From: Aphanocapsa sp. GSE-SYN-MK-11-07L
GTDB taxonomy: Bacteria; Cyanobacteriota; Cyanobacteriia; Thermosynechococcales; Thermosynechococcaceae
Reading direction: 5' to 3'
Assembly: GCA_019359715.1 (NCBI GenBank)
Contig: JAHHGS010000104.1
Coordinates: forward strand, 1 to 42,722
DNA: 42,722 bases
Shown piece after piece: positions 2,993 to 32,439 of the stretch. Each line of letters opens with the position of its first letter. The first letter of the stretch is position 1. The notes beneath the pieces are model-generated. The model was not told where the DNA came from and did no database searches. It saw only the letters and a program-made list of their open reading frames with translations. A program made the translations under genes and the position numbers.

Positions 2993-3181
2993 TCATGTTT
3001 CAGTCATCACATCGTAAAAGTGAAAATGTAAATCCGTCCGATTTGCTGCGAGACGCCAATCCGACCATGACTTCTGCCGGTCAGACTGTCCGCTGCAAAG
3101 CGTATGGTTAGAACTAGGATAAATGTCTTGTAAGCGGTTTGCTAAGGCTGGAGAGAGATTGTGGTCAAAGAGTAGCTTCAC
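2993..3181 (-). pseudogene. Decayed DUF5615 (PIN-like) toxin
   Basis: A GTG at 3181 opens VKLLFDHNLSPALANRL, the diagnostic N-terminus of DUF5615/Mut7-C-like PIN toxins, whose family proteins are usually about 110-120 residues. After about 30 residues the family match is lost: the expected acidic segment around DDREVW and the TKDxDF motif are replaced by an unrelated tail with a few family-like residues, and the frame stops after about 62 codons. The GTG overlaps the stop of the DUF433 remnant (GTGA), the usual order of this toxin-antitoxin pair. I infer frameshifts and loss of function. A longer in-frame ORF from 3232 exists, but its first 17 codons are the antitoxin 3' end read in another frame. 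Confidence 0.6.
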
Positions 3182-3412
3182 GCTTCTACAACCATCAACA
3201 GTTTTTCTCGATCGGCAGCGTAGCTGAGGCAAGCAAGAATGTCGGCTTCGGTCAAGTAGGGAAAGTCGTCGAGAATTTGTTGATGAGACATGCCTGCCGC
3301 AAGGGACTCTAGGACATCGTAGACTGTGATTCTCATGCCTCGAATGCAGGGTTTGCCGCCTCGCTTACCTGGTTCGAAGTTTTAGGTTTCGACGATCAGT
3401 GATAAACTTCAT
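3178..3412 (-). pseudogene. Decayed DUF433 antitoxin
   Basis: Read on the minus strand from 3378, the sequence gives FEPGKRGGKPCIRGMRI, then YDVLESLAAGM and a LTEADILACL segment, ending in a TGA at 3178. This is the DUF433 antitoxin family, the usual partner of DUF5615 toxins. An in-frame TAA (3382-3384) lies just before the conserved core, and the only sensible upstream ATG (3410-3412) is in another frame, so the N-terminus has been broken by a frameshift. The remainder is intact for about 65 codons, so decay is recent. Together with the truncated toxin downstream it is a dead module. An internal start (GGC ATG AGA) would make only a very short protein. Confidence 0.6.
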
Positions 3413-3436: not shown

Positions 3437-3535
3437 GCGATCGCACTTTTAATCTTCTCCAGAGCTTCGGTTTTTATCTGCCCTTTACAGCAAAAGCTTC
3501 ATCCCATCTACGTTTGTGCGCGATCGCATCTAAGA
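3437..3535. repeat. 99-bp direct repeat, copy A
   Basis: This block begins and ends in HIP1-containing sequence (GCGATCGCAC... and ...GCGCGATCGCATCTAAGA). It matches 4309-4407 at 93 of 99 positions with no gaps. The two copies are in the same orientation and bracket the parDE-like module. The minus strand of this copy reads AIAHKRRWDEAFA before a stop, which resembles a fragment of a small antitoxin gene, so the repeat may derive from an older toxin-antitoxin locus. The remaining bases of 3536-3681 hold no intact gene. Confidence 0.8.
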
Positions 3536-3681
3536 TTCGTACCTCTGAGCACCACCTTAAGCTAATTCTTCTTGTAAAGCCGTTGGCGAATCACCATAGG
3601 TTTGACTTCGTTGCAACTTGATCCATTGCGATGCACTTGTTGTGCTGCTTTGCCTGTCCAAGTCTTGCAGGCGAGGAGGTC

Positions 3682-3981
3682 TTAATTGGACTCCTCGAAG
3701 AGAGATGGAAAATTACGGCGACCACTCACAACTCTCAGAATTTCGATACCATCATCCAATAGTCGATAAAAAATGACGTAACCTTCAAATGACAGCCCTC
3801 GGAGTCCAGGGTGGATTGTTTTATAGCTTTTGCCACTGTTAGGAAAAGCAACAAGTTGTTGGCACTTGCGGTTGAAATCATGAAAGAAACGCTCACCAGC
3901 TTCAACGCTATTTTCGGCAAAGTAGTCAGCGATTTCGTTCAGGTCTTGACTGGCAAGAACGTTAATAACGTAGCGACTCAT
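3682..3981 (-). CDS. parE: RelE/ParE-family toxin
   Basis: The 99-residue protein has the RelE/ParE fold signature. The N-terminus is YVINVLASQDLNEIADYFAE, followed by a helix with FFHDFNRKCQQLV, the FPNSGK...HPGLRGLSFEGY segment, and the C-terminal strand pair YVIFYRLLDDGIEILRVVSG. Length and layout fit ParE-type toxins, which poison DNA gyrase, or RelE ribosome-dependent nucleases; the sequence does not separate the two, although the ParD-like partner favours ParE. Its ATG overlaps the antitoxin stop by four bases (ATGA), so the pair is translationally coupled, antitoxin first. The module is flanked by the 99-bp repeats. Confidence 0.85.
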   Translation of the reverse strand: MSRYVINVLASQDLNEIADYFAENSVEAGERFFHDFNRKCQQLVAFPNSGKSYKTIHPGLRGLSFEGYVIFYRLLDDGIEILRVVSGRRNFPSLFEESN

Positions 3982-4308: not shown

Positions 4309-4407
4309 GCGATCGCACTTTTAATCTTTTCCAGCGCTTCTGCTTTTATCTGCCCTTTGCAGCAAAAGCTACATCCCATCTACGTTTGTGCGCGATCGCA
4401 TCTAAGA
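4309..4407. repeat. 99-bp direct repeat, copy B
   Basis: Second copy of the repeat at 3437-3535, same orientation, six substitutions. It sits between the parD start (4238) and the hicA stop (4457). The distance between equivalent bases of the copies is 872 bp, exactly bracketing the parDE-like module. Confidence 0.8.
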
Positions 4408-4456
4408 ATAACAGCTCTAATCATTTGGAAATCGGGTGCAAGCGGCTTGTTACGCC

Positions 4457-4681
4457 TCATCGCGACTCTAACAGTTCTTCAACAGTTAATTCGATGTCGC
4501 TTGCAATTTGCCGTAGAAGTCTGGGAGAAATATCACGTCCTTTATGAAACGGAACAGTTGTCGCTCGCCCATCTTCATGCCGAAACTGCTTGTGTGAACC
4601 TTTTTGACGAACCTCTGCAAAACCTAGATTTTCCAGAATACGTACAACCTCTTGCGGCTTCAGGACGGGAATGTTACTCAT
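4457..4681 (-). CDS. hicA: HicA mRNA interferase toxin
   Basis: The 74-residue protein is a typical HicA: VLKPQEVVRILENLGF, then RQKGSHKQFRHEDGR with the catalytic histidine in the G-S-H-x-x-(F/Y) motif, then TTVPFHKGRDISPRLLRQI and a C-terminal helix. The family has a double-stranded-RNA-binding-like fold and cleaves mRNA when not bound by HicB. The gene lies three bases after the hicB stop on the same strand. This antitoxin-then-toxin order is the reverse of the classical hicA-hicB order and of the second module at 19566-20134. The length is normal and all motifs are present, so it should be active. Confidence 0.92.
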   Translation of the reverse strand: MSNIPVLKPQEVVRILENLGFAEVRQKGSHKQFRHEDGRATTVPFHKGRDISPRLLRQIASDIELTVEELLESR

Positions 4682-4684
4682 TGT

Positions 4685-4894
4685 TTACTGAACCACAATC
4701 TGCTGTGTACCAACAAACTCCGTCTTGAACACTACTTCCTCATCCTCCAAGAGCATCTCAATAACTTCACGAAGATTCTCGTGCAACTCGTCCAAAGTTT
4801 CTCCTTGGGAGTGCGCTCCAGAAAATCCAGGAATATAACCAACGTAGAGGTTAGTGTCAGAATCTCGCTCGACGATTGCAGTAAAGGTTCTCAT
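4685..4894 (-). CDS. hicB: HicB-family antitoxin, short form without DNA-binding tail
   Basis: The 69-residue protein has the partial RNase H-like fold of HicB: an N-terminal strand with FTAIVERDSDTNLYVGYIPG, the family signature SGAHSQGETLDELHENLREV, and a final helix and strand. There is no C-terminal ribbon-helix-helix or helix-turn-helix domain, unlike the 105-residue HicB at 19817. It should neutralise HicA but may not bind DNA itself. It starts 35 bases after the Argonaute stop on the same strand, so the two toxin-antitoxin genes could be read through from the Argonaute promoter. Confidence 0.9.
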   Translation of the reverse strand: MRTFTAIVERDSDTNLYVGYIPGFSGAHSQGETLDELHENLREVIEMLLEDEEVVFKTEFVGTQQIVVQ

Positions 4895-4929
4895 AAGCTA
4901 CTTATTTTACTAGTCAACATTTCAGGTAT

Positions 4930-7122
4930 TTAGACAGCAATTAGCTTTTCTCGATTGAGATTTTGGAGAATACTAATTTGACCAATTCGCTGAAATTCTT
5001 TACTACTTCTGTCAGCTAAATGCAGTATCCAAGGTAATCGGCAAGAGCGAAAGGCGCTAGCGGGATGTAATTGAGTTAGATGATAAGTTTGCAAAGCTAA
5101 TACCTCCAAAGAGGTGTCACCATACTCATGCATAACTCGCAGAGGCCTTACGCTACCAATACTTTGATTGATTGGTTGGCTTGTCACGAGAAGAAAAGAG
5201 TTCTCTTTGGGCATAAATACTACGCTACCAATTTCGGCATCCCGATATATTTTTCCTTGATCTTGAGAAATTTCACGCCCCATCCTTCCTGTTCCACTTT
5301 TGCGGACACCAACTAAGTCAACAGCGATATTTTTATCTATTAGTGCATTTATAGTTTGTTGGAATTCTCCTTCTTGAATTAATCCGTCTCGCATCAATAG
5401 TAGCTGTCTCGGATAGCGATTGCAGATTTTGTGAAATCTGAGAATTAGCTTAGAGACTGTTTGCCAAACTGCCTCACCCGATAAACGTTCGCCTCGCTGC
5501 ACATCAGGAAGTTCCCATCCTAAACTCTGTCCATCTGCAAGCACCGCAAAAGCCGAAGTTCCATAGTAAAGCTCACGGTTCGTCCCAGTATCAAAACCAA
5601 TAATCAAATCTGCGGCTTTAGGATGATCTAGTGGCTCCAATCGAACAGTTTGCCATCCTGCTTTACAAAGTAAGCCTAAAACCACATTCATCGCCTTGTA
5701 GGCATCAGCCTTTGGCAAGGGCAATATAAATTGGGTGGCAATTCCAGCTTGTAGTGCTTCAACTCTAATTTGTTTTTTACGCGCATTCGGTAACCAAGGG
5801 GCAACTACCAAAATTGTCTGTATGTTAGTCTGTGCCCACTCTTGCCAAAACATCTGCCGATCTAGCTCTCCTTGAGGCAGTTGCTCTAATATCCTGTAGG
5901 AGTCATATTCAATTTCAGCACCGCTATTCTTCGCCACCTCTTTTAAACACTTCTCAACCTCTTCGGGATATTTGAGTTGAGTGTTATGTAGATTGAGGCA
6001 ACCAAACTTCACTTCTCCAACTTTAACGCAGCCCTTATAGCGAACCTTGCCAGTTTTATCCACTTCTCCATTTTTAGCGAAGAGTTTTCCTCTGGGTAGG
6101 ATAAACCCAGCTACAACAGATGGTTGAGCAGGCATAGATACCTTATAAATATTCTCAATAATTTGATGTGCGGTTTTCTCTGATTTTTTTAGGCGAACAT
6201 CTAAAGACTTTCTAATGAAGTCAAACACTCCTTGTACATTTTTCTTCTCTTTAGGATCAGATTTTTCTGCTACATTAGCTAACATCTCCATAGTTAAGCA
6301 AGGAGAAAGCCTCTGAGATAGATGAGTGGTTAACTGAGCGTTCCAATTGTTAGCTTTTTTTACGTAGACAGTGCAGGAATTTTGGATTTCTTCCTCGGTA
6401 GCTCCAATTTGCCGATGATAATCAGCAAGTGTTATTCCCAAGCCTTCTATTAATACTTGATCTGGTGCTTGATCGCAAACATCATCATATTGCCAAGTGA
6501 TGTAGTTATTATTTTTATCTTTATATGTGTTGCGAACGTAAGTGATTGGAATATCCGAGTATTCGTCTTGCCATTGTTGCAGTGTCCAAGGAGTATAAAA
6601 ACGATGGTGTAGATCGATTTCTAGGTAGAGTGTACTATCTGTATCAATACTGACATCTATTCTTCTTCCTCTATGTACTTCCCATCCCGCCCCAAACATT
6701 TCTTTACCTTCTTCTCCTGTAATCCACCAAATTAACCCACCTTCAGAAGCCTTCTCAATCGCAGTCTTGTCCCATTTTTTTAAGCTCTGTTCTAATATTT
6801 TTCTTTCTAGTTGCTCAATTCCTTGACGTTCTGTAGGGTTAGTACAATCTAGTATTTTTTTGCAAGTAAATTTTACTTCCCAACCATCACCCTGCAATCG
6901 ATCTGGATTTACTGCCTCTTTAGCAATGATTCTATTCCCTAGTCTAATGGCAGGCACTCCAAGTTTATAGCAAATACTGGCGATCGCTTTCTGTTCCTGT
7001 CCATGATCAGGATTTTGTGTAAAGCTACAACTATATTCAGGAAATGTCCGATCAGCTACGGACAAGTTCTTTACTACAAAACGATTTAATACGATTGAAG
7101 TTTTTTCAAATTGAAATGCCAT
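4930..7122 (-). CDS. ago: Long prokaryotic Argonaute, predicted catalytically active
   Basis: The 730-residue length fits long-A Argonautes (N, PAZ, MID, PIWI). The PIWI domain (about 500-730) has D511 in IIGFDTGTN, E545 in VQRGERLSGE, D579 in LLLMRDGLI and D704 in WILHLADRSS. The 34/34-residue spacing of the first three equals that of the DEDX tetrad in Thermus Argonaute, so the nuclease site looks complete. The MID domain (about 430-500) has K449, R453, Q464 and K487 at the spacing of the guide 5'-phosphate pocket; R453 replaces the usual lysine. The region around 170-290 should be PAZ. Family knowledge: related cyanobacterial Argonautes (Synechococcus elongatus, Limnothrix rosea) are DNA-guided DNA nucleases that act against plasmids and phages. 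No helicase, nuclease or Sir2/TIR partner is adjacent; the nearest co-directional genes are hicBA. The gene is AT-richer than its surroundings, with one HIP1 site (6980-6987), suggesting transfer. Confidence 0.93.
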   Translation of the reverse strand: MAFQFEKTSIVLNRFVVKNLSVADRTFPEYSCSFTQNPDHGQEQKAIASICYKLGVPAIRLGNRIIAKEAVNPDRLQGDGWEVKFTCKKILDCTNPTERQGIEQLERKILEQSLKKWDKTAIEKASEGGLIWWITGEEGKEMFGAGWEVHRGRRIDVSIDTDSTLYLEIDLHHRFYTPWTLQQWQDEYSDIPITYVRNTYKDKNNNYITWQYDDVCDQAPDQVLIEGLGITLADYHRQIGATEEEIQNSCTVYVKKANNWNAQLTTHLSQRLSPCLTMEMLANVAEKSDPKEKKNVQGVFDFIRKSLDVRLKKSEKTAHQIIENIYKVSMPAQPSVVAGFILPRGKLFAKNGEVDKTGKVRYKGCVKVGEVKFGCLNLHNTQLKYPEEVEKCLKEVAKNSGAEIEYDSYRILEQLPQGELDRQMFWQEWAQTNIQTILVVAPWLPNARKKQIRVEALQAGIATQFILPLPKADAYKAMNVVLGLLCKAGWQTVRLEPLDHPKAADLIIGFDTGTNRELYYGTSAFAVLADGQSLGWELPDVQRGERLSGEAVWQTVSKLILRFHKICNRYPRQLLLMRDGLIQEGEFQQTINALIDKNIAVDLVGVRKSGTGRMGREISQDQGKIYRDAEIGSVVFMPKENSFLLVTSQPINQSIGSVRPLRVMHEYGDTSLEVLALQTYHLTQLHPASAFRSCRLPWILHLADRSSKEFQRIGQISILQNLNREKLIAV

Positions 7123-7250
7123 AGAAAATTAAACCTTTTCGGATAATTTATTAGGAGCTACTAACAATTAGACAACGCCAACTATTTTTCTTGCCTTTCA
7201 TTCGATCCTTGAAGACAACCTGCCTTGTGCTGGCGAAATAACTACTAATT

Positions 7251-19380: not shown

Positions 19381-19565
19381 TAGATCAGCTGGTCAATAGT
19401 GTCTAGGCGGCTGGAGTCGCCGGCCTTTAGAATTTCTATTGTACCGACTTGGCCAATGTTCACTCTCAGATCTTTACATTGGGCAAGGGAGTTTAAGCAT
19501 TACAAATTTTAAGCCAAGATCAAGCATGATACTATTTAGTGATACTATTAAACTATAAAAATATA

Positions 19566-19820
19566 ATGAACAATAAAAACCGTAAAACCTATGATGCTAT
19601 TTTTGCTAAGCCGATTAGTTGCACTATTCTCTGGACTGAGGTGGTGACTTTAGTGCTTGCCTTAGGTGGTGATGTGATTCAAGGAGATGGCTCCAAAGTG
19701 CGTTTCGATCTAAATGGAGTTTCACTTAACCTTCACTCTCCCCATCCTCAGAAAGAGCTAAAACGCTATCAAGTCAAGGCTGTTAGGGATTTTCTAAATA
19801 ATGCAGGTGTGGAACCATGA
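19566..19820 (+). CDS. hicA: HicA-like toxin
   Basis: An 84-residue protein from ATG 19566 (a GTG at 19539 is possible but adds only AT-rich leader). The pattern is HicA-like: ILWTEVVTLVLALGGDVIQG as first helix, DGSKVRFDLNGVSLNLHSPH, where the GSKVRF stretch takes the place of the family's GSHxxF, and KRYQVKAVRDFLNNAGVEP as last helix. The catalytic histidine of GSH is replaced by lysine here, and HSPHP supplies histidines one strand later. This variant is common in the HicA group that pairs with long HicB. Activity is therefore less certain than for the module at 4457. The ATG of hicB overlaps the stop (ATGA). The region is AT-rich. Confidence 0.8.
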   Translation: MNNKNRKTYDAIFAKPISCTILWTEVVTLVLALGGDVIQGDGSKVRFDLNGVSLNLHSPHPQKELKRYQVKAVRDFLNNAGVEP

Positions 19821-20134
19821 ACTATAAAGGCTACGAGGCGATCGTCGAATTTGACGAATTAGATCGCTTATTCTTTGGTCGCGTGATTGACACTCGCGAT
19901 GTCATTGCTTTTGATGGCGCGTCAGTGGATGAACTTGAGCAGTCTTTCCACGCAGCAGTTGATGAATATTTAGCCGATTGCCAAACAATCGGAAAGACGC
20001 CTGATAAGCCATTTTCAGGCCGATTCAATCTGCGAATTTCTTCGGAGCTACATCGACAGGCTGCTACTAAAGCTGAAAAAGAGGGAATTAGCTTAAATAC
20101 ACTTGTTGAAAAAGCACTTCAGCAGGTGATTTAG
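19817..20134 (+). CDS. hicB: HicB antitoxin with ribbon-helix-helix tail
   Basis: The 105-residue protein has an N-terminal HicB fold (YKGYEAIVEFDELDRLFFGR, then FDGASVDELEQSFHAAVDEY) and a C-terminal DNA-binding tail, FSGRFNLRISSELHRQAATK followed by LNTLVEKALQQ, of the ribbon-helix-helix/Arc type. It should bind HicA and repress the hicAB promoter. It is translationally coupled to hicA by a four-base overlap. The pair is convergent with yebC, whose stop is 31 bases away. Confidence 0.9.
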   Translation: MNYKGYEAIVEFDELDRLFFGRVIDTRDVIAFDGASVDELEQSFHAAVDEYLADCQTIGKTPDKPFSGRFNLRISSELHRQAATKAEKEGISLNTLVEKALQQVI

Positions 20135-30214: not shown

Positions 30215-32068
30215 CTACTCCATTGCGGCAAAGTGGTCTTGCAAATACTTGTGCACAAAGCTGTAGCGACCTCCAACCTGCTGAACAAACCTAAGCTCGT
30301 TACAGTAATTGAAAAAGCGCACATAATCCAAAGGAAATAGTTCAGCTCTATGCAAGAGCAAACGAAGAAGAAAGTGTTGGATACAGGCCAATCCTCCAAA
30401 CACCAACCCAACAATCAACCCCACTCCGCTCATCAGTAGCTTCCCCAACAATAGTTCACTCAGCAGCCCGGCAATCACAGAAATTAGAGCAGATCGTTTA
30501 ATTCCTTGATTTGGATGCCTTTTTACAGGAACTGATTTCGGACTTAGCCCAAGCATCAAACCGCCGAACAGCACAGCAAACAATCCAAGTGTCAATCCAG
30601 CAGTTGCTCCAAGTATCAATCCAGTAATCAGCCCATATTTCAGTCCAACTATTAATCCAGCAGTCAATCCGCCAGTTAAGGCAATAACTAACCCACCAAT
30701 CACCACACGTTTCAAGACTTTCGACCAAGACCATTTCAAAGCTTCTATTGGATTAATGCGAAGCGATGCATAACCTATTCTGTAAAAGATCAATCCAAAT
30801 CCCACTCCAGCCATCAATCCACACTCAAGCCCAAATCTCGCTCCAAATGCTAAACCGACGACCAACATAATACCCTGTCCAAATATCAACCCAGCAGTCA
30901 GCCCAAATATCAGCCCAATACTCTGCTGGTAGCGGAGCTGTACTTCGTTAGGCAACATTGATGGCTGAAGGTCTTCAATCAGAAACGTAGTTTGCGACTG
31001 CTGCTTCATCTGCCGTGCCAACCAACCTAACCATTTCTTCGTTTGTTTTGGTGTTGGAGCCTTTCGTCTCCCGTAGGTGCGGCTTTCAACCACACGCTTC
31101 ACCATCTGCTCGATATAGTTACGAAGTATGTGGTTTAGGTGTTCTCTAGTGGTTTGAAATCGCTGCCATTTCTGTTCAGAGCCTGGAGGGTAGGCTAGGG
31201 TAATAATACTTAAGAAAAAAGGTTTTCGTAGCAAGACTAGCAGTTTTGGATAAGCAGAAATGGACGAATATAGCTCTGATCGCCCCACATCTAAATAAGT
31301 GATGATTTGCTCGTTGCTCAAATCCTTGAGACGAATCGCTCCATTCAGTTCCAGAGCTTTCTGACAGAACTTGTATACCTTCCAGCGACAGCATACAGCG
31401 AGGTAGAAAGGAGCATTTGCACCCCCCAGGTATTCGTTGATTCGGGCCACACAGCCCGCCTGTCGTTCCGCTGGAAGTTCATCTAGTCCGTCCAATAACG
31501 GTAGAATCCGGCGCTCTTTTACCCACTGCTGCCTCAATGGAAGACTTTCCTGGTAAGTGGACAGTGAATCAATTAACCAGGCTTGTATCGACTGGCGATC
31601 GTCCTTCCAAGTAGATAAATCAAATATCACAGGGATCGGATAATTACTTTGGGCTTTGGCTCGTTTTAGGAGAGCTTGGGCTAAATTCATCAATTCAGTA
31701 GTTTTGCCAGAACCGGGATGTCCTAGAATTAACAACTTGCCCGTAATTTCGGGCAAATCAAAGACCTGTAAAGCTGTCGTGTTTTTTTCTAGAAGTGTTG
31801 CTGGTTTATGAACAGGCTTGATCCCACGCTCCTTTCGTTCCAGCAGTAACTCTCTATCTGGATTTAAGGAAATACCATGATGGAAATTCTGTGCCAACCA
31901 AGATGTGACGCCATTCTCAACTTGTGACCGTAAATCTTTTAATAACCGTAAGTCTTGTTCGTTAGGAGAACAGTCTAATTTCTGATTCTCAATAAAAACA
32001 TTACCCTCAACGGTTCCGATGTTGTAAAGATCGCGATTGGCATGTTGATCTTGCTGAGCCATTTTCAT
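30215..32068 (-). CDS. NACHT NTPase with glycine-rich membrane segments, NLR-like sensor
   Basis: A 617-residue STAND protein. Residues 11-23 carry the motif NRDLYNIGTVEGN, also found at the end of the upstream gene product. The NACHT domain (about 105-330) has Walker A GHPGSGKTT (116-124), Walker B ILPLLDGLDELPA (188-200) and a winged-helix-like segment to about 375. From about 383 to 575 the protein is strongly hydrophobic with G-L-x-x-G-L periodicity (for example LTGGLTAGLIVGLKYGL), giving perhaps six to eight membrane segments split by a charged loop (510-525). The C-terminus RYSFVHKYLQDHFAAM is typical of cyanobacterial NACHT proteins. There are no WD, TPR or LRR repeats; the membrane region may be sensor or pore. 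Its ATG overlaps the preceding stop (ATGA). Likely role: abortive-infection-like defence, by inference. Confidence 0.85.
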   Translation of the reverse strand: MKMAQQDQHANRDLYNIGTVEGNVFIENQKLDCSPNEQDLRLLKDLRSQVENGVTSWLAQNFHHGISLNPDRELLLERKERGIKPVHKPATLLEKNTTALQVFDLPEITGKLLILGHPGSGKTTELMNLAQALLKRAKAQSNYPIPVIFDLSTWKDDRQSIQAWLIDSLSTYQESLPLRQQWVKERRILPLLDGLDELPAERQAGCVARINEYLGGANAPFYLAVCCRWKVYKFCQKALELNGAIRLKDLSNEQIITYLDVGRSELYSSISAYPKLLVLLRKPFFLSIITLAYPPGSEQKWQRFQTTREHLNHILRNYIEQMVKRVVESRTYGRRKAPTPKQTKKWLGWLARQMKQQSQTTFLIEDLQPSMLPNEVQLRYQQSIGLIFGLTAGLIFGQGIMLVVGLAFGARFGLECGLMAGVGFGLIFYRIGYASLRINPIEALKWSWSKVLKRVVIGGLVIALTGGLTAGLIVGLKYGLITGLILGATAGLTLGLFAVLFGGLMLGLSPKSVPVKRHPNQGIKRSALISVIAGLLSELLLGKLLMSGVGLIVGLVFGGLACIQHFLLRLLLHRAELFPLDYVRFFNYCNELRFVQQVGGRYSFVHKYLQDHFAAME

Positions 32069-32439
32069 CCCCCACCAAATCGGTTGGAATTACCTTCAAT
32101 TTTTCCAATATTATAGATATCTCGTCCGGCTGTCTGACTGATAATCTGCTGAGCCATATGTCTAACTTCAGTATCAAATTCTGGATCATTTTCCATTTCT
32201 AGACGCAGGTACTTGCCTACATCAGCAATGGCTGCTGGTGTCCTTTCATGTTCAGCTTGGGCTAAAGCCGCTTCCGCTTCAGCATTGCCTGTGAACTTGG
32301 CACGAATTTTATCCCGCAGGGCTTTTGCCAGTTCAACTGCACCGCTGACCGTTTTTTTGGCCAACTCCCCAGCTCCGGCCTTGGCCAATTCATCTAAAGC
32401 AATTTTGGCGATTTCCTTAGCAGCAATAGTTTCAAGCAT
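32065..32439 (-). CDS. Small helical protein with C-terminal signalling motif, candidate effector of the NACHT protein
   Basis: The 124-residue protein has an alanine/lysine-rich amphipathic N-terminal half (MLETIAAKEIAKIALDELAK, KKTVSGAVELAKALRDKI), a second helical part (about 52-103), and a flexible end holding RDIYNIGKIEGN (106-117) followed by a glycine tail. The same motif opens the next protein. Small helical domains plus a C-terminal amyloid-type motif are the known layout of Bell-type bacterial effectors that pair with NLR genes; the Bell assignment is a guess from size, position and helicity. The genes overlap by four bases, so they are coupled. A promoter-like sequence lies about 40 bases upstream. 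A non-effector regulator or adaptor is the alternative. Confidence 0.8.
   Translation of the reverse strand: MLETIAAKEIAKIALDELAKAGAGELAKKTVSGAVELAKALRDKIRAKFTGNAEAEAALAQAEHERTPAAIADVGKYLRLEMENDPEFDTEVRHMAQQIISQTAGRDIYNIGKIEGNSNRFGGG

What the first reader, a model, noticed from the sequence alone, without database searches (positions are those of the whole stretch)
4930..7122. Long-A Argonaute with complete DEDD tetrad in a mesophilic cyanobacterial toxin-antitoxin island
D511, E545, D579 and D704 are present with the 34/34 spacing of active Argonautes. The MID pocket has arginine (R453) where lysine is usual. The gene is co-directional with hicBA 35 bases downstream, so nuclease and toxin could share a transcript; an Argonaute-toxin coupling would be a new link.
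Basis: partly seen in the sequence, partly recalled or inferred. Interest (0 to 1): 0.68.

Follow-up and report, generated by a model that had tools for sequence, protein, structure and literature searches.

The report
Argonaute nuclease beside unrelated toxin genes
This is a cyanobacterial member of a known family of guide-directed DNA-cutting Argonaute nucleases; the toxin-antitoxin pair next to it does not accompany the same Argonaute in any relative examined, so the gene is real but the proposed Argonaute-toxin partnership looks like chance neighbourhood.

Summary
The sequence reading is correct. The ORF at 7122-4930 (-) encodes a 730-aa full-length Argonaute. Its D511/E545/D579/D704 align with TtAgo D478/E512/D546/D660, and the predicted fold matches TtAgo over its whole length (Z 46). 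The MID pocket reads K449-R453-Q464-K487, the 'KR' subtype of long-A Argonautes published in 2018; R453 is shared by nearly all relatives. A small hicBA module starts 35 bp downstream on the same strand, with no terminator found between.

The proposed Argonaute-toxin link fails its own test. In 33 other loci of this ago clade, plus 9 more distant agos, none has HicA beside ago. DNA similarity to relatives stops at the ago stop codon. Downstream genes differ among lineages. hicBA modules recur elsewhere in the same genome without ago. The ago is low in GC (40% against 50%) and its tree position conflicts with its host family, so it was probably acquired laterally, landing next to TA modules, two intact and one decayed.

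Verdict: a new member of a known kind (TtAgo/SeAgo-like DNA-guided nuclease) beside an autonomous TA module. Co-transcription remains possible but unremarkable.

The parts
4930..7122 (-). ago: long-A-type Argonaute, 730 aa (N, PAZ 183-274, MID, PIWI). Tetrad codons D511 at 5592-5590, E545 at 5490-5488, D579 at 5388-5386, D704 at 5013-5011. MID motif K449-R453-Q464-K487.
   Evidence: GC 40.1% against 50.1% for the window
7123..7188 (-). 5' leader of ago, conserved with the closest relative (Chlorogloea sp. CCALA 695); may carry ago's own promoter (inferred)
   Evidence: blastn similarity to L027 runs 4919-7188; alignment
4685..4894 (-). hicB, small antitoxin of 69 aa without a DNA-binding domain
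   Evidence: Pfam HicB_lk_antitox 1.6e-06 and UPF0150
4457..4681 (-). hicA toxin, 74 aa (a hicBA module of 'Class 2' type)
   Evidence: Pfam HicA 2.6e-20; class definition in PMC10865869
4309..4423 (.). 115-nt direct repeat, copy on the hicBA side of parDE
   Evidence: 89% identical to 3437-3551; only these two long copies in the genome
3978..4238 (-). parD-like antitoxin
   Evidence: Pfam ParD 2.7e-06
3682..3981 (-). parE-like toxin
   Evidence: Pfam ParE 1.3e-15
3437..3551 (.). 115-nt direct repeat, second copy
3178..3336 (-). remnant DUF433 antitoxin: 52 aa, 5' part lost
   Evidence: Pfam DUF433 from profile position 17 only; the intact relative in L032 matches positions 1-56
2993..3232 (-). 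remnant DUF5615 (PIN-like) toxin, truncated
   Evidence: 31 of 110 profile positions match, below cut-off; the intact relative in L032 matches 1-108

Best explanation
The gene encodes a catalytically competent long-A-type Argonaute of the TtAgo/SeAgo kind. By homology it binds short 5'-phosphorylated DNA guides (KR-type MID pocket, PAZ for the 3' end) and cuts complementary DNA with its DEDD PIWI site. Its likely roles are limiting plasmids and transforming DNA and possibly helping to finish replication, as reported for SeAgo and TtAgo. It moves between cyanobacteria as a single gene with a short leader. In this genome it landed next to toxin-antitoxin modules: hicBA and parDE intact, DUF433/DUF5615 decayed. 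hicBA is an autonomous TA module that happens to lie 35 bp downstream. Read-through transcription is possible but is not evidence of a joint mechanism. Shown here: tetrad, pocket residues, fold, domain set, gene order, lack of recurrent linkage, end of homology at the ago stop codon. Inferred: DNA-guided DNA cleavage, defence role, lateral transfer as a single gene, independence of hicBA.
For: Full-length match to TtAgo, E 1e-63; PADLOC pAgo 5e-286; PAZ_3 1.3e-21. Tetrad and pocket aligned to TtAgo and conserved in the family. AlphaFold2 model with pLDDT 85.8; TtAgo is the best structural match, Z 46.4 over 672 residues. No HicA beside any of 33 other same-clade ago loci or 9 more distant agos. 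DNA similarity ends at 4917-4934 in the relatives whose match reaches the 3' end. Downstream genes differ: Phd/ParE in L029, DUF433/DUF5615 in L030-L032, RHH+HicB in L038, ccmK-like genes in L054-L057, recO in L059. The own genome has 8 HicA and 9 HicB-like places, and only one of these modules adjoins ago. GC is 40% against 50%. In the tree the gene groups with Chlorogloea (Entophysalidaceae) rather than with its family's Thermosynechococcus agos.
Against: The 35-bp same-strand gap and the absence of a terminator between ago and hicB fit a shared transcript. The small HicB lacks a DNA-binding domain, so hicBA may depend on outside transcription. One relative (L038) also has a HicB-family gene about 280 bp downstream of ago, though without hicA. 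Four of roughly ten lineages nearest the window gene have some TA gene within 0.5 kb downstream; I did not test whether that exceeds the TA density of these genomes. SeAgo and LrAgo sequences were not in hand, so placement next to SeAgo rests on literature.
Confidence: 0.87

Rival explanations
1. ago, hicB and hicA form a functional operon. The TA module acts as an abortive-infection or addiction arm: if an invader blocks expression of the Argonaute transcript, the labile HicB is lost and HicA halts the cell.
For: 35-bp gap, same strand, no terminator found; HicB without a DNA-binding domain, so autoregulation is doubtful (for the class); a HicB gene also follows ago in L038.
Against: No hicBA beside ago in 33 other same-clade loci; closest relative L027 (81% identity) has unrelated genes downstream; homology ends at the ago stop codon; hicBA modules recur elsewhere in the genome without ago.
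Confidence: 0.06
2. TA modules of any type are selected next to this mobile ago because they stabilise the acquired island. The TA type is interchangeable, and there is no mechanistic link to the Argonaute. (A refinement of the best explanation rather than its opposite.)
For: Four independent lineages carry four different TA or antitoxin genes just downstream (window, L029, L030-L032, L038). pAgo neighbourhoods were found enriched for TA in 2009 (PMC2743648).
Against: These genomes are rich in TA modules (up to 12 HicA and 25 ParE places in one genome), so some neighbours are expected by chance. Most loci, including the closest relative, lack a TA gene there. Enrichment was not tested here.
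Confidence: 0.25
3. The gene is a decaying, non-functional Argonaute kept by hitch-hiking in a TA cluster.
For: ago is dispensable and often broken in relatives: IS insertion in L043, split reading frames in L046 and L049, internal loss in L050. A neighbouring TA module is decayed.
Against: The window copy is full length, without stops, with every catalytic and pocket residue conserved.
Confidence: 0.04

Closest known systems
TtAgo (Thermus thermophilus Argonaute)
   Same: Full-length domain order, DEDD tetrad, MID pocket at the same four positions, fold (Z 46). TtAgo is the closest solved structure.
   Different: 29% identity. The first two pocket residues are K-R instead of R-K.
SeAgo (Synechococcus elongatus), predicted-active cyanobacterial long-A pAgos
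   Same: Literature places the predicted-active cyanobacterial long-A pAgos, including Thermosynechococcus, in one cluster with TtAgo (PMC10653904). The window protein is 57-68% identical to Thermosynechococcus-like agos.
   Different: SeAgo itself was not compared; the window gene's closest relatives are in Chlorogloea, Nostoc and Pseudanabaena.
Long-A pAgos with a KR-type MID motif (Ryazansky et al. 2018, PMC6299218)
   Same: K and R at the first two pocket positions, Q and K at the others.
   Different: No difference noted; guide preference of this subtype was not found in the text read.
Class 2 hicBA modules (PMC10865869)
   Same: hicB before hicA, HicA 74 aa, HicB 69 aa, no DNA-binding domain, 3-bp gap.
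   Different: Lies downstream of an ago; the paper does not mention Argonaute.
pAgo-associated effector systems (SPARTA/SPARSA, long-B pAgo with effectors, long-A with PLD; PMC10620215, PMC11442185)
   Same: A pAgo gene next to a potentially toxic protein.
   Different: Judging from their abstracts, those pair a pAgo with a recurrent partner, often because the pAgo is inactive. Here the pAgo has its tetrad and the partner does not recur.

Membership tests
Long-A prokaryotic Argonaute | Full-length architecture with N, PAZ, MID and PIWI | tested here: met
   PAZ_3 at 183-274; residues 6-728 align to TtAgo; model matches TtAgo over 3-730
Long-A prokaryotic Argonaute | DEDX catalytic tetrad in PIWI | tested here: met
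   D511, E545, D579, D704 on TtAgo D478, E512, D546, D660
Long-A prokaryotic Argonaute | 5'-phosphate guide-binding motif in MID (YK, KR, RK, HK or YY, then Q and K) | tested here: met
   K449-R453-Q464-K487, KR subtype
Long-A prokaryotic Argonaute | Groups in the long-A clade of the MID-PIWI tree | tested here: inconclusive
   The tree held only TtAgo as an outside member, no long-B or short pAgo. Best solved match is TtAgo.
Long-A prokaryotic Argonaute | Guide-directed cleavage of nucleic acid | not testable with these tools
   Needs the purified protein
Class 2 hicBA toxin-antitoxin module | hicB-hicA order, HicA 60-85 aa, HicB 60-90 aa without DNA-binding domain, closely linked | tested here: met
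   HicB 69 aa, HicA 74 aa, 3-bp gap; Pfam finds only the HicB core
pAgo-toxin effector system | The partner gene recurs beside the pAgo across lineages | tested here: not met
   No HicA beside ago in 33 same-clade loci or 9 more distant agos
pAgo-toxin effector system | pAgo and partner are co-expressed and act together | not testable with these tools
   No expression data or assay available

The most novel reading that the evidence does not exclude
The hicBA module lacks its own DNA-binding regulator and is expressed from the ago transcript. HicA toxicity would then be tied to Argonaute expression, giving a one-off lineage-specific fail-safe for an active pAgo.
Probability: 0.05. Interest if true: 0.5.

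Novelty: new member of a known kind. Interest (0 to 1): 0.2.

Why it matters
It adds a well-conserved candidate to the small set of predicted-active cyanobacterial Argonautes with a KR-type guide pocket. It also shows that an attractive ago-toxin gene order can be a lineage-specific accident, which argues for a recurrence test before proposing such couplings.

Tried and rejected
Viral contigs: none of 49 pattern matches encodes a relative. Plasmids: the full-length relatives are Thermus agos at 26-28% identity, so no cyanobacterial plasmid copy turned up. Pfam's Piwi model PF02171 does not ring in this genome, although the protein is clearly a pAgo; that model is too narrow for this clade. Empty-site test: the genes flanking the island (901-aa protein and TSCPD protein) are never close together in 58 relatives, so no empty site could be found. 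A HicA hit in the Nostoc genome seemed to lie 4 kb from ago; its contig is 86,696 bases, not the ago contig of 101,602, and the place encodes no HicA in L028. Promoter and terminator scans gave about as many sites as shuffles, or fewer.

Full report
WHAT IS THERE. The ORF at 7122-4930 on the - strand starts with ATG and encodes 730 aa without internal stops. phmmer against solved structures finds TtAgo first, aligned over residues 6-728 at E 1.2e-63; CpAgo, CbAgo and KmAgo follow, matching the MID-PIWI half. PADLOC calls it pAgo at 5e-286, and Pfam finds the Argonaute PAZ domain at 183-274. When TtAgo is added to the family alignments, D511, E545, D579 and D704 fall on TtAgo D478, E512, D546 and D660. 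In relatives the first three are invariant; the fourth is D, or H in three Thermosynechococcus-type paralogues.

GUIDE POCKET. TtAgo R418, K422, Q433 and K457 correspond to K449, R453, Q464 and K487. R453 is found in nearly all relatives, with Q or E in three or four distant ones. Ryazansky et al. 2018 list KR among the variants of long-A pAgos and consider that most such variants bind 5'-phosphorylated guides (PMC6299218). The arginine is a subtype mark of the clade, not a peculiarity of this protein.

FOLD. AlphaFold2 with 18 family sequences gave pLDDT 85.8 and pTM 0.81. Foldseek and VIA-align 2 both put TtAgo complexes first (E 3e-58; Z 46.4, 672 residues aligned, rmsd 4.5).

NEIGHBOURS. 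hicB starts 35 bp after the ago stop and hicA 3 bp after hicB, on the same strand. With HicA of 74 aa and HicB of 69 aa lacking a DNA-binding domain, the pair fits the 'Class 2' hicBA modules of PMC10865869. Further downstream lie parDE, apparently intact, flanked by two 115-nt direct repeats (89% identical, two long copies in the genome). Next come a 5'-truncated DUF433 and a truncated DUF5615, a decayed TA pair compared with the intact relative in L032. The rest of the contig is mostly housekeeping genes.

IS AGO LINKED TO HICBA? A HicA profile built from 20 HicA proteins finds HicA only in the window. Pfam HicA searched over the whole genomes finds no HicA next to ago where contigs can be compared, nor in nine genomes with more distant agos. 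A HicB-family gene follows ago in one relative (L038), without hicA. blastn similarity between the window and the relatives that reach the 3' end stops at 4917-4934, the ago stop codon, and the alignment shows unrelated DNA right after it. Upstream, the closest relative keeps about 65 bp of leader. The unit shared between genomes is thus the single gene. hicBA modules occur at several other places in the own genome (8 HicA, 9 HicB-like places).

WHERE THE AGO CAME FROM. GC is 40.1% for ago, 50.1% for the window and 53.6% for the neighbouring ribonucleotide reductase genes. The closest relative is in Chlorogloea sp. CCALA 695 (81%), then Nostoc (76%) and Pseudanabaena (75%). The agos of the window's own family, mostly in Thermosynechococcus-like genomes, are 44-68% identical and fall elsewhere in the tree (support for the WINDOW+L027 pair is 89/94, below the starred level). 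Lateral transfer is the simplest reading and is the published view for pAgos.

LITERATURE. Makarova et al. 2009 found pAgo neighbourhoods significantly enriched in defence genes, with TA genes adding to the significance (PMC2743648). Ryazansky et al. 2018 found no fixed operon composition for long-A pAgos apart from the MID-OH group. The mBio 2023 paper on SeAgo reports reduced natural transformation and plasmid maintenance. A TA module beside a long-A pAgo is therefore expected, and no hicBA link was found in the texts read.

HOW IT MOST LIKELY WORKS. As a DNA-guided DNA nuclease of the TtAgo/SeAgo kind, which limits incoming plasmid or transforming DNA and perhaps helps replication. This is inferred from homology; only the residues, domains and fold are shown. 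hicBA most likely works as an independent TA pair. A shared transcript is possible from the 35-bp gap and the lack of a terminator, but it would not by itself mean a joint mechanism.

LIMITS. SeAgo, LrAgo and CbAgo sequences were not aligned directly in a family alignment. The tree lacks long-B and short pAgos. Enrichment of TA genes of any kind beside ago was not measured against a background; these genomes are rich in TA. The host's growth temperature is unknown.

Noticed in passing
L053 (reverse strand, about 5143-5943) and L059:8227-9030: The DEDH-type second ago of Thermosynechococcus-like genomes lies about 50 bp upstream of recO (RecO domains confirmed in L059), a recombination-repair gene, on the same strand in two genomes.
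   Followed up: partly
L043:8757-10000: In Gloeomargaritales cyanobacterium VI4D9 the ago is interrupted by an insertion sequence: DDE transposase, terminal inverted repeats GGGCACCTCTATT, probable 4-bp ATTA target duplication.
   Followed up: yes
L046, L049, L050: ago genes with split reading frames (L046, L049) or large internal loss (L050): the gene is often broken in this clade.
   Followed up: partly
L034 and L035 (Thermosynechococcus sp. M98_K2018_005): Two agos giving the same identity and E-value, about 14 kb apart on one contig, suggesting a recent duplication or an assembly repeat.
   Followed up: no
window 3437-3551 and 4309-4423: 115-nt direct repeats flank parDE; there are only two long copies in the genome. 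They may mark how the parDE module was inserted or duplicated.
   Followed up: partly
window 30215-32439 (-): NACHT-domain NTPase (617 aa) with a 124-aa protein just upstream that weakly resembles a PD-DExK nuclease; possibly a small defence locus.
   Followed up: no
window 19539-20134 (+): A second hicAB module, with the larger HicB family (PF05534), on the same contig.
   Followed up: no
L038:12186-12667: Just downstream of ago: an RHH-like antitoxin gene and a HicB gene, with no toxin gene detected between them and gyrA; orphan antitoxins.
   Followed up: partly
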